Virus record (IMG/VR): IMGVR_UViG_3300044816_000005
Span: 1 to 23,812 of that record
Strand: one strand, 5' to 3'
Length of the DNA: 23,812 nucleotides
DNA from: a virus
The position numbers and the translations under genes are program-made. Positions 12,086 to 20,971 of the stretch are shown one piece after another (the first letter of the stretch is position 1; each line of letters begins with the position of its first letter). The notes beneath the pieces are model-generated. The model did not search any database. It saw nothing but the letters and a program-made list of their open reading frames with translations, and was not told the origin of the DNA.

Positions 12086-12406
12086 TCAGGAGAGATGAAC
12101 CTCGATGTGGTCGAGACCTTCGAGGGATCCGGAATCGAAACGGGCAAGCGTGATCACGCGGGACTCGCGGCCGGATGACGTTGTGACCATGGATCCGAGG
12201 GCGAACAGCGACGCGAGGGTCAACTCGCCAAACACGGTCGAGGTGGATACGACCTCGGTGCCGCTAGCGTCGCGTACGAGCTTGGTGACGTCCTCGACGA
12301 AAACCAGCGCCGGCACGGCGGATGCCCATTGGTCGCCGTAGGCACCGGCACCGAGCTTGGTCTCGACTGCGACCGTGTGGACCCACCACTCATCGAGCTC
12401 GGACAC
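12086..12406 (-). CDS. Head-tail stopper / head closure protein (106 aa)
   Basis: GTG at 12404-12406 with AAAAGGAG 5 nt upstream. The sequence is short and beta-rich with an acidic start (MSELDEWWVHTVAVETKLGA), a strand pair around DQWASAVPALVFVEDVTKLV, and a closing beta region with GSMVTTSSGRESRVITLARF. Size and fold pattern match head-tail stopper proteins, which close the portal after packaging. The adaptor gene should normally sit right before it; here an HNH gene and its leader lie between them. The ribosome site is intact, so the stopper is probably still made. Function comes from size, order and neighbours. Confidence 0.7.
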   Translation of the reverse strand: MSELDEWWVHTVAVETKLGAGAYGDQWASAVPALVFVEDVTKLVRDASGTEVVSTSTVFGELTLASLFALGSMVTTSSGRESRVITLARFDSGSLEGLDHIEVHLS

Positions 12407-12421
12407 GCGAACTCCTTTTAG

Positions 12422-12835
12422 CTAAGCTGCGATCCGGCGTCGAGGGTGAGCGAGGACGTCGCACTTGCGGCAATGTCGGCGACCAAGCTTGTCGACGTAG
12501 GTGTTCGCCTGGGCGAACTCGTGACCATGTGAGCAGTGCGTCTTGCGGCGGTTGTTCTCGCCGACCGTGCCGCGCCTGACGTTCTCCGCGTGCGTCACGG
12601 GCTCAAGGTGCTCGACGTTGACGCACAATCGTGTCCGGCAAAGATGATCGAGCTGAAGCTCGAGCGGTATCTCCTGGACAAGGTGCTCGTATGCCAGGCG
12701 ATGTGCCTGCTGCGTCTTGCCGTCAAGCCAGAACAGCCCGTAGCCACCACGGGAGGCCGCCTGCCAGAGATGGCAACCGTCCGGCTGCGTCTCGACCTTC
12801 GGGAGAAAGCGTTCGACCCAGATAAGCTGATCCAT
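12422..12835 (-). CDS. Free-standing HNH homing-type endonuclease (137 aa)
   Basis: ATG at 12833-12835 follows GGAG by 6 nt; an in-frame TTG four codons earlier is less likely. The HNH_3-type core is at residues about 60-90: LDHLCRTRLCVNVEHLEPVT with Asp63-His64, Asn73, His76 and His82 in the ordered positions of a beta-beta-alpha metal site. Residues 19-50 (DGCHLWQAASRGGYGLFWLD, then AHRLAYEHL) form the lead-in strands of that family. The C-terminus (Cys101, His103, Cys122, Cys125) may bind zinc and help DNA recognition. It is inserted between the adaptor and stopper genes, 15 nt before the stopper start. Such stand-alone HNH genes spread by cutting phages lacking them. The unusual part is the long structured leader at 12836-13041. 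Confidence 0.88.
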   Translation of the reverse strand: MDQLIWVERFLPKVETQPDGCHLWQAASRGGYGLFWLDGKTQQAHRLAYEHLVQEIPLELQLDHLCRTRLCVNVEHLEPVTHAENVRRGTVGENNRRKTHCSHGHEFAQANTYVDKLGRRHCRKCDVLAHPRRRIAA

Positions 12836-12861
12836 GTTCGACTCCAACCAGTCGGGCCACG

Positions 12862-12890
12862 CCCCCGGACGATTGCCATCGTCGCGGGGG
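12862..12890. other. Stable 12-bp hairpin just upstream of the HNH gene
   Basis: CCCCCG-GACGAT (12862-12873), loop TGCC (12874-12877), then ATCGTC (12878-12883), one bulged G, and CGGGGG (12885-12890). On the plus strand the stem is followed by TTTTCC, so it could act as an intrinsic terminator for stray antisense transcription. On the minus strand it forms a hairpin in the HNH leader, ending 26 nt before the ATG, where it could influence translation of the nuclease. Confidence 0.6.
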
Positions 12891-12916
12891 TTTTCCTTGT
12901 TCTGCAGGGGGTGAAG

Positions 12917-13035
12917 CGGGACGGGGCGCAGGACCGCTCATCAGAGAGTGAAAGGCACCCGGCGTGGAACTCTCCGAGCGATCCTTAACGCGGGCCAATG
13001 TCCTTTGCCGGGCGCGAGTTTGACGCCCCGCCCCG
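12917..13035 (-). ncRNA. Predicted structured leader RNA of the HNH gene (novel candidate)
   Basis: In the minus-strand transcript, 13035-13024 pairs with 12928-12917 over 12 bp (CGGGGCGGGGCG with CGCCCCGTCCCG, one G-U pair). Inside this, 12985-12976 pairs with 12939-12930 over 10 bp (AGGATCGCTC with GAGCGGTCCT, one G-U). A three-base bulge (GAT) then leads to 12975-12969 pairing with 12949-12943 (GGAGAGT with ACTCTCT, one G-U). A short CAC/GTG stem closes the tip. The wobbles are legal only on the minus strand, which is the transcribed strand. The region is non-coding on both strands. Pairing was found by eye in GC-rich DNA, so no folding energy is claimed. Confidence 0.45.
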
Positions 13036-13041
13036 AAGTCG

Positions 13042-13551
13042 CTAGCGGGCGCCGAGGATTCGGTAGCGGTTGAGCACGAGCTGCTCGACCACCAACAACT
13101 CACCGGCGGTGGCCGTCTTGGAGTACGTGAACGAGGTGCTGCCCATCGTCTTGGACTGCTTGCCGCTGCTGGCTGTCGGCATGCGCTTGGTGATCGACGC
13201 GAGCACGGAGGGAATCTCGGCGGGCAAGGTGTCCACCGTGTAGCCACCGGAGTAGGTCACACCGACGTTGCGCTGCCCGTAGGGCCACACGTTGCCGCGG
13301 GCCCAGCTATTCCAGACCAAGCAGCCGTTCTCAGACCAATCGCAGTCCATGCCCGGGCCGATCGTCGGCACGGTGACAGTGCCCCAGCGGTCGGTCACGG
13401 ATATGGCGGACACGCCGGTCACGTGCAGCGAGGGCAGCAGCAGCAGATCGTTGCCGGTGCCGTCGAGCTTGATGGTGCGGTCGGTCACGACCTCGGTTGG
13501 ATCCCACCCGCACCAGGCGACCATCGCCGCCTGGGCGAGTGGATCGGTCAT
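13042..13551 (-). CDS. Head-tail adaptor (connector) protein, gp6-like (169 aa)
   Basis: ATG at 13549-13551 lies 2 nt after the previous stop. The N-terminus is helical with aromatic residues (LAQAAMVAWCGWDPTEVVTD). It is followed by a beta segment (TIKLDGTGNDLLLLPSLHVT), WGTVTVPTIGPGMDCDW, and NVGVTYSGGYTVDTLPAEIP, then the helix IPSVLASITKRM. The 'G(Y/F)..LP..I' pattern before the last helix is typical of gp6-like and SPP1 gp15-like adaptors, which bind the portal and recruit the stopper. The order, after capsid genes and before the stopper, agrees. The stop is followed by the structured leader of the HNH gene. Confidence 0.75.
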   Translation of the reverse strand: MTDPLAQAAMVAWCGWDPTEVVTDRTIKLDGTGNDLLLLPSLHVTGVSAISVTDRWGTVTVPTIGPGMDCDWSENGCLVWNSWARGNVWPYGQRNVGVTYSGGYTVDTLPAEIPSVLASITKRMPTASSGKQSKTMGSTSFTYSKTATAGELLVVEQLVLNRYRILGAR

Positions 13552-20638: not shown

Positions 20639-20971
20639 TCACCGCTCGCCGTAGCGAGCGTGGCACGACAGGCACAGCGGGCGCATGCGGTGATGAGCGT
20701 CAGGATCGCTCGCACCTCGCTCGACGAGCGAGCGCCGCGTCTCTGGCCAATGGTCGGGCACCTCGGCCAGCACACCACACAGCACGCACAGCGGGTGCTC
20801 TCGCAGGAAGCCCGGCCGTACGTACGTGCGCCATCGGTAGCCGTAGCCTCGCTGCTCAGGTGATGCACGTGAGCTGTCATGCCTGGCCTTGCGCTGCCTC
20901 GTGCACGTGGGGCAGCGACCACGCACCAGTGCCTTGCATCGTGGGCACAGACGCGCTGGTGCGTTCGGCAT
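20639..20971 (-). CDS. HNH endonuclease beside terminase (110 aa)
   Basis: ATG at 20969-20971; no clear ribosome site is visible, so the start is less certain. The N-terminus has two Cys pairs, Cys9/Cys12 and Cys20/Cys23 (CPRCKALVRGRCPTC), which could form a zinc knuckle. The core GYGYRWRTYVRPGFLREHPL leads to Cys62/Cys65 (CVLCG) and the Asp73-His74 pair (PDHWPETRRS). The end has HHRMRPLCLSCHARYGER with Cys100, Cys103 and His104. This is the HNH type commonly encoded next to small terminases, where in HK97-like phages it is needed for specific cutting at cos. The first residues and missing ribosome site suggest weak or coupled translation. Confidence 0.88.
   Translation of the reverse strand: MPNAPARLCPRCKALVRGRCPTCTRQRKARHDSSRASPEQRGYGYRWRTYVRPGFLREHPLCVLCGVLAEVPDHWPETRRSLVERGASDPDAHHRMRPLCLSCHARYGER

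What the first reader, a model, noticed from the sequence alone, without database searches (positions are those of the whole stretch)
12836..13041. Structured non-coding leader attached to a free-standing HNH gene in the head-tail operon
Seen directly: about 200 nt without a gene, in an operon where most genes touch or overlap. Its minus-strand RNA can form a 12-bp outer stem (13035-13024 with 12928-12917), a 10-bp inner stem with a 3-nt bulge and a 7-bp continuation, plus a separate 12-bp hairpin (12862-12890) just before the HNH ribosome site. Several pairs are G-U and therefore favour the transcribed strand. HNH genes in phages are known mobile elements, but a large folded leader is not a standard part. 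It could be a regulatory RNA, a co-mobile RNA partner of the nuclease, or the remnant of a larger element. I know of OMEGA/HEARO RNAs beside IscB nucleases, but this HNH protein is far too small to be IscB.
Basis: partly seen in the sequence, partly recalled or inferred. Interest (0 to 1): 0.75.

Follow-up and report, generated by a model that had tools for sequence, protein, structure and literature searches.

The report
Antisense RNA over phage endonuclease start
The folded stretch before this phage's mobile HNH nuclease gene most likely encodes a roughly 65-base antisense RNA on the opposite strand that covers the gene's ribosome-binding site and holds it in check; the same element sits in front of well over a hundred different genes in actinobacterial phages and chromosomes and is not in Rfam.

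Summary
The gene-free stretch and its stems are real, but the part that matters is smaller than described and probably acts on the other strand. Only the last ~66 nt (12836-12902) is conserved. It recurs directly before the start codon of at least 149 distinct genes, mostly HNH, GIY-YIG and endonuclease VII genes, in IMG/VR contigs, named Arthrobacter phages, a Streptomyces plasmid and actinobacterial chromosomes. Both hairpins covary strongly. Three independent signals put the folded RNA on the strand opposite the HNH mRNA. First, stem departures read as A-C mismatches on the sense strand (32, against 3 G-U), which are G-U wobbles on the antisense strand. Second, an antisense -10 box (TANNNT) lies at nt 8-13 of the downstream ORF in 120 of 149 cases, against 21 of 1,102 control ORFs. 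Third, a U-rich tract follows the larger antisense hairpin. Best reading: a ~63-68 nt cis-encoded antisense RNA that blocks translation initiation of a mobile endonuclease, working like IS10 RNA-OUT but unrelated in sequence and absent from Rfam. The large outer stem (12917-13035) has no detected homologue and is unsupported. HNH plus leader is an insertion: relatives have the empty site. No transcript or regulation has been shown.

The parts
12836..12898 (+). Predicted antisense RNA: 5' end about 12834-12836, 3' end in the U-tract about 12892-12899
   Evidence: Two perfect hairpins, -31.8 kcal/mol, z -3.96; model R1 hit 12902-12830 on the minus strand, 66 bits, E 2.7e-16; homologues in at least 149 loci
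12823..12828 (+). Antisense -10 box TAAGCT (TANNNT), inside codons 3-5 of the HNH gene
   Evidence: Same position (ORF nt 8-13) in 120 of 149 homologues against 21 of 1,102 control ORFs
12836..12857 (+). Antisense hairpin H2': 8-bp stem with two G-U pairs; loop complementary to the Shine-Dalgarno region
   Evidence: the pair next to the start codon is 42 A-U / 39 G-C with 0 exceptions among 81 sequences
12861..12891 (+). Antisense hairpin H1': long GC-rich stem with one bulge, the stem of a probable intrinsic terminator
   Evidence: Covaries along the stem; the antisense fold is more stable in 73 of 81 homologues
12891..12898 (+). U-rich tract TTTTCCTT after H1' (terminator tail)
   Evidence: Sequence; homologues average 4.6 A in the 9 nt 5' of H1 on the sense strand against 1.7 background
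12842..12845 (-). Shine-Dalgarno GGAG of the HNH gene, inside sense hairpin H2
   Evidence: Sequence; invariant in alignment A2 (part of the search pattern)
12422..12835 (-). Free-standing HNH endonuclease gene (HNH_3, 137 aa, ATG start)
   Evidence: Pfam HNH_3 E 4e-9
12407..13041 (-). Inserted segment: HNH gene plus its upstream region, between head-tail adaptor and next gene
   Evidence: In relatives L020 and L021 (65-68% capsid identity) the adaptor stop overlaps the next start codon (GCGATGAGC), so the site is empty
12902..13041 (-).
   Evidence: No homologue found; z -2.1 / -0.5

Best explanation
The conserved 66 bp is a cis-encoded antisense RNA gene laid over the translation start of the HNH gene. 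RNA polymerase starts on the plus strand from a -10 box inside codons 3-5, makes a ~63-68 nt RNA of two hairpins, and stops at the U-tract after the larger one. This RNA is the exact complement of the ribosome-binding site and start region of the HNH mRNA. Its loop carries CCU-type sequence complementary to the Shine-Dalgarno, so pairing (probably loop first) would block ribosome binding and keep the mobile nuclease low, more strongly as phage genome copies accumulate. Shown here by sequence: recurrence, covariation, strand asymmetry, antisense -10 box, U-tract. Inferred: transcription, pairing, repression, copy-number dependence.
For: Element precedes 149 non-redundant ORFs; a scrambled pattern gives 0 hits against 64. 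Covariation in 81 elements chosen on H2 only: 95.3% of cells paired, 215 double-changed cells vs 63 +/- 10 shuffled, score 0.396 vs 0.113 with 0/500 shuffles, slid versions at most 0.062; same in a CM-found set. Strand: sense G-U 3 vs A-C 32, plus an invariant C-A at 53-73 that is G-U on the antisense strand; 1 vs 20 in the second set. Antisense TANNNT at ORF nt 8-13 in 120/149, 1-6 in equal windows further in, control ORFs 21/1,102; it was not part of any search pattern. Also in 15 of 20 host-chromosome copies. U-tract enrichment. TANNNT is the documented SigA -10 sequence of M. smegmatis (PMC6448022). A sense -10 box lies 14-24 nt upstream of H1 in 42/77, background about 3, so many copies have facing promoters. 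Copies in one phage have different loops. IS10 RNA-OUT is a known 69-nt antisense RNA to a transposase start region (PMC5006887).
Against: No transcript data. No antisense -35 consensus was seen, and in the window the U-tract is interrupted by CC. The window copy lacks a recognisable sense -10 box, so its mRNA would come from operon read-through, where a weak antisense RNA might matter less. The 5' end is inferred from the -10 box. Most genomes carry only 1-4 copies, so multi-copy inhibition is speculative.
Confidence: 0.76

Rival explanations
1. Sense-strand translational operator: the mRNA leader itself folds into H1 and H2, and H2 hides the Shine-Dalgarno until something opens it, as with the mobE and I-TevI hairpins of T4-like phages.
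For: SD and start codon always lie in or beside H2. Sense H2 folds at about -6 kcal/mol. In 14 variants with a non-canonical H2 each 5' arm matches its own 3' arm better than a swapped one: -4.92 vs -4.03 +/- 0.29. A sense -10 box about 20 nt upstream of H1 in half the copies makes the element the whole 5' leader. Precedent reviewed in PMC2988022.
Against: Stem departures are A-C, not G-U, on the sense strand, and a C-A mismatch is invariant. The fixed antisense -10 box inside the ORF is unexplained. Both could coexist, because complementary strands share hairpins.
Confidence: 0.13
2. A strand-separating module: H1 is only an intrinsic terminator that stops antisense or converging transcription at the front of newly inserted genes, and the antisense promoter is incidental.
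For: H1' is followed by a U-rich tract on the antisense strand.
Against: Does not explain H2 with its covarying end pair, the placement on the start codon, or the fixed antisense -10 box feeding a ~65-nt transcript.
Confidence: 0.06
3. A DNA-level site (operator, or mobility end of the HNH element) that happens to be palindromic.
For: Dyad symmetry; facing promoters; several copies per genome. The Cluster K ESAS repeats were interpreted as DNA sites (PMC3203893).
Against: The sequence changes freely while pairing is kept, loops and a one-sided bulge are asymmetric, and the wobble asymmetry needs a single-stranded RNA.
Confidence: 0.03
4. OMEGA/HEARO-like guide RNA of the nuclease, or remnant of an intron or larger element.
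For: RNA next to an HNH gene that is an insertion.
Against: Protein has only HNH_3, no RuvC or bridge-helix domain matched; no Rfam match; same RNA precedes non-nuclease genes; flanking genes intact.
Confidence: 0.02

Closest known systems
IS10/Tn10 RNA-OUT (antisense RNA to the transposase mRNA RNA-IN)
   Same: Short (69 nt) antisense RNA from a promoter facing the gene, complementary to the translation initiation region of a mobile-element enzyme (PMC5006887)
   Different: Different sequence and architecture (two hairpins here; one long stem in RNA-OUT, from memory); no Rfam match; controls endonucleases and assorted accessory genes of actinobacterial phages; antisense promoter lies in codons 3-5; no experiment yet
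SAS/ESAS start-associated sequences of Cluster K mycobacteriophages (and EF Microbacterium phages)
   Same: Repeated element at the ribosome-binding site of a subset of accessory genes with an upstream inverted repeat (PMC3203893, PMC7302621)
   Different: Different sequences (GGGATAGGAGCCC); authors found no support for RNA hairpins in ESAS; model R1 finds no convincing site in Cluster K phage Anaya
RBS-sequestering hairpins of T4-like homing endonucleases (mobE, I-TevI)
   Same: Post-transcriptional restraint of phage homing endonucleases at the ribosome-binding site (PMC2988022)
   Different: Those are sense-strand hairpins; here the structural evidence points to the antisense strand
OMEGA/HEARO RNAs of IscB
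   Same: Structured RNA beside an HNH-encoding gene
   Different: No IscB domains, no sequence relation, other strand

Membership tests
Cis-encoded antisense RNA of a translation start region (functional class) | Dedicated promoter on the opposite strand | tested here: met
   -10 box TANNNT at fixed ORF nt 8-13 in 120/149 vs 21/1,102 controls; sequence evidence only, no -35 seen
Cis-encoded antisense RNA of a translation start region (functional class) | Stable fold of the antisense strand with a 3' terminator | tested here: met
   z -3.96 for window + 12836-12898; U-tract enrichment; wobble asymmetry
Cis-encoded antisense RNA of a translation start region (functional class) | The transcript exists and regulates the gene | not testable with these tools
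   No RNA-seq or genetics available
RNA-OUT family (IS10) | Sequence/structure match to the known family | tested here: not met
   Both strands of the window and 17 member loci against all Rfam 15 models: no match to the element
SAS/ESAS of Cluster K phages | 13-bp SAS GGGATAGGAGCCC and 17-bp promoter-like inverted repeats | tested here: not met
   Different sequence; R1 best hit in Anaya 17.3 bits, E 0.0045, not at a SAS site
OMEGA/HEARO RNA with IscB | IscB-type protein (RuvC + HNH) beside the RNA | tested here: not met
   137-aa protein with HNH_3 only
OMEGA/HEARO RNA with IscB | HEARO covariance model match | tested here: not met
   No Rfam hit up to E 5 in 12400-13150
T4-type RBS-sequestering hairpin | Sense-strand hairpin covering the SD | tested here: inconclusive
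   Sense H2 covers the SD, but the wobble pattern favours the antisense strand

The most novel reading that the evidence does not exclude
A large, undescribed family of antisense RNA modules of actinobacterial phages and chromosomes: a portable ~70-bp cassette with facing promoters that travels with homing endonucleases and other accessory genes and shuts their translation down in a copy-number-dependent way, with variable loops giving each copy its own specificity.
Probability: 0.4. Interest if true: 0.86.

Novelty: new variant of a known kind. Interest (0 to 1): 0.72.

Why it matters
How free-standing phage homing endonucleases are kept from harming their carriers is known in a few T4-like cases. 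This would give a common, sequence-recognisable control device in actinobacterial phages, reaching at least 33 of 297 sampled Actinomycetes genomes and many genes of unknown function. It offers a covariance model, precise promoters and an immediate laboratory test, and it suggests that the first codons of these genes are shaped by a promoter on the other strand.

Tried and rejected
Rfam search of window and members: no match to the element. tRNA scan: none. DNA homologues of the upstream 140 nt: none. HNH relatives L002-L019, found by protein: none carries the element at the HNH start, so it is not a fixed part of HNH_3 genes; a weak hit in L018 lies far from its HNH gene. I first favoured a sense RBS-hiding hairpin; it dropped to second place when the A-C/G-U asymmetry and the antisense -10 box appeared. 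Start-codon pairing proposed by RNAalifold (columns 48-51/75-78): rejected because the covariation supports 52-75 instead. ESAS membership: rejected. A plasmid hit, L041, lies inside a long ORF that looks like a transporter gene and is taken as chance. Patterns CCCCCGCGA... and its scrambled control were run on the same collection: 64 vs 0 hits. Control class of the Variovorax genome: 0 of 274 genomes, with stricter filters in both class searches. Text searches for the motif letters and for antisense RNA with HNH phage genes found nothing relevant; the library lacks most subscription journals.

Full report
WHAT IS IN THE WINDOW. The window is a virus record of 23,812 bases. A 5,407-base stretch is identical to a contig of a Pseudonocardiales metagenome-assembled genome (L032). 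On the minus strand lie the capsid gene, a head-tail adaptor (13042-13551), the HNH gene and the tail-side genes. The HNH gene is HNH_3. In the two closest relatives found (L020, L021; capsid 65-68% identical) the adaptor's stop codon overlaps the next start codon (GCGATGAGC), so 12407-13041 of the window is an insertion.

CHECK OF THE OBSERVATION. The stretch 12836-13041 folds better than shuffled sequence (z -2.99 minus, -2.41 plus), and the named repeats exist. The strength is not evenly spread. The upstream 140 nt has z -2.1 (-) and -0.5 (+), close to what some 5% of the contig's windows show, and no homologue. I therefore leave the large outer stem as unsupported.

THE CONSERVED ELEMENT. 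A low-stringency DNA search found the last ~60 nt in Arthrobacter phages Bauer, Persistence, Tiff81 and Pitbull and in a Streptomyces atratus plasmid, each time just before an HNH-type ORF. A pattern scan of IMG/VR on hairpin 1 plus GGAGTC gave 64 stretches; a scrambled pattern of the same composition gave none. After removal of redundancy, 149 elements with distinct downstream genes remain. Pfam matches among those genes: HNH_3 44, HNH_5 15, HNH 15, MUG113 11, T5orf172 10, endonuclease VII 8, GIY-YIG 4; the rest have no match or unknown domains (families overlap). Chromosomal copies also precede DUF6415 and unmatched small genes.

COVARIATION. In 81 elements (80 of them with exact hairpin-2 bases as the selection, plus the window), 95.3% of pair cells are standard, 215 cells changed on both sides (63 +/- 10 in shuffles), and the score is 0.396 against 0.113, with no shuffle reaching it; sliding the partners destroys it. 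The pair beside the start codon is A-U in 42 and G-C in 39 with no exception. A set found by the covariance model, with host-chromosome copies, shows both-sided changes in hairpin 2 as well (this alignment leans towards its model). Own hairpin-2 arms fit better than swapped ones. The model finds the window copy at 66 bits, 1-4 copies per phage record, 33 of 297 Actinomycetes genomes at E <= 1e-6, and 0 of 274 genomes of the class of Variovorax.

WHICH STRAND. On the mRNA strand the stems contain 3 G-U but 32 A-C cells, and a C-A mismatch in hairpin 2 is invariant; the second set has 1 against 20. Read on the other strand, all these A-C cells are G-U wobbles. The antisense hairpin 1 is more stable in 73 of 81. 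For the window, 12836-12898 gives z -3.96 on the plus strand, with the first base paired and TTTTCCTT after the second hairpin; the minus strand gives -2.71.

THE ANTISENSE PROMOTER. If the RNA is antisense and starts at hairpin 2, its -10 box must lie inside the downstream gene. It does: ANNNTA on the sense strand (TANNNT antisense) begins at ORF nt 8 in 120 of 149 cases and somewhere in nt 6-14 in 136, against 1-6 in equal windows further into the same ORFs and 21 of 1,102 in other ORFs of the same loci. No search pattern covered these bases. Host-chromosome copies show it in 15 of 20. TANNNT is the SigA -10 sequence reported for Mycobacterium smegmatis (PMC6448022). The spacing puts the 5' end at or next to the covarying base beside the start codon. 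The window has TAAGCT at 12823-12828.

THE SENSE SIDE. A sense -10 box lies 14-24 nt upstream of hairpin 1 in 42 of 77 elements (background about 3), with A-rich sequence between. About half the copies are thus flanked by facing promoters. The window copy has no such sense box, so its HNH mRNA probably comes from the structural operon.

MECHANISM. Best reading: a ~63-68 nt antisense RNA, complementary to the whole translation start region, represses the mobile endonuclease, as RNA-OUT does for IS10 transposase (69-nt antisense RNA, first 35 nt complementary to the translation initiation region; PMC5006887). The strand asymmetry fits: the antisense RNA is well folded while the mRNA hairpins carry mismatches, which should leave the mRNA easier to translate when the antisense RNA is scarce. 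Copies within one phage have different loops, as expected if each regulates its own gene. Transcription, pairing and repression are inferred, not shown.

LIMITS. E-values from the model use a short calibration. Sets were drawn by patterns, so frequencies of the exact hairpin-2 bases are biased (hairpin 1, the end pair and the antisense -10 box are not). Absence from Rfam 15 and from the papers searched does not prove that nobody has described the element.

Noticed in passing
window 12847 / 12835: The mechanical ORF call starts the HNH gene at TTG 12847; the conserved element places the start at ATG 12835 (137 aa).
   Followed up: yes
window 12902-13041: GC-rich 140 nt with a 12-bp outer stem, no homologue and no sense -10 box; why this copy has so long a spacer is unexplained.
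   Followed up: partly
window 20639-20971: A second small HNH-like ORF beside the terminase genes (by eye; no Pfam match) lacks the element.
   Followed up: partly
L114, L130, L156, L209 (about 40 nt before the start codon): A sub-type with a different, longer hairpin 1 (GCCCCCGACCCGATTGCGACGGGCCGAGGGCAAGAG) but the same hairpin 2.
   Followed up: no
L062, L066, L067, L079: The element precedes phage genes beginning MI(V/L)TGAF (probably the DUF6941 matches), not nucleases, with a longer gap to the start codon.
   Followed up: no
genome G255: One actinobacterial chromosome carries 10 model matches at 39-48 bits; several hosts have multiple copies, some before small unknown genes.
   Followed up: partly
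L235 (Mycobacterium phage Anaya), SAS sites: The SAS GGGATAGGAGCCC could itself form a 3-bp hairpin with the Shine-Dalgarno in its loop; some ESAS arms look like TTGACA/TACTGT promoters with dyad symmetry.
   Followed up: partly
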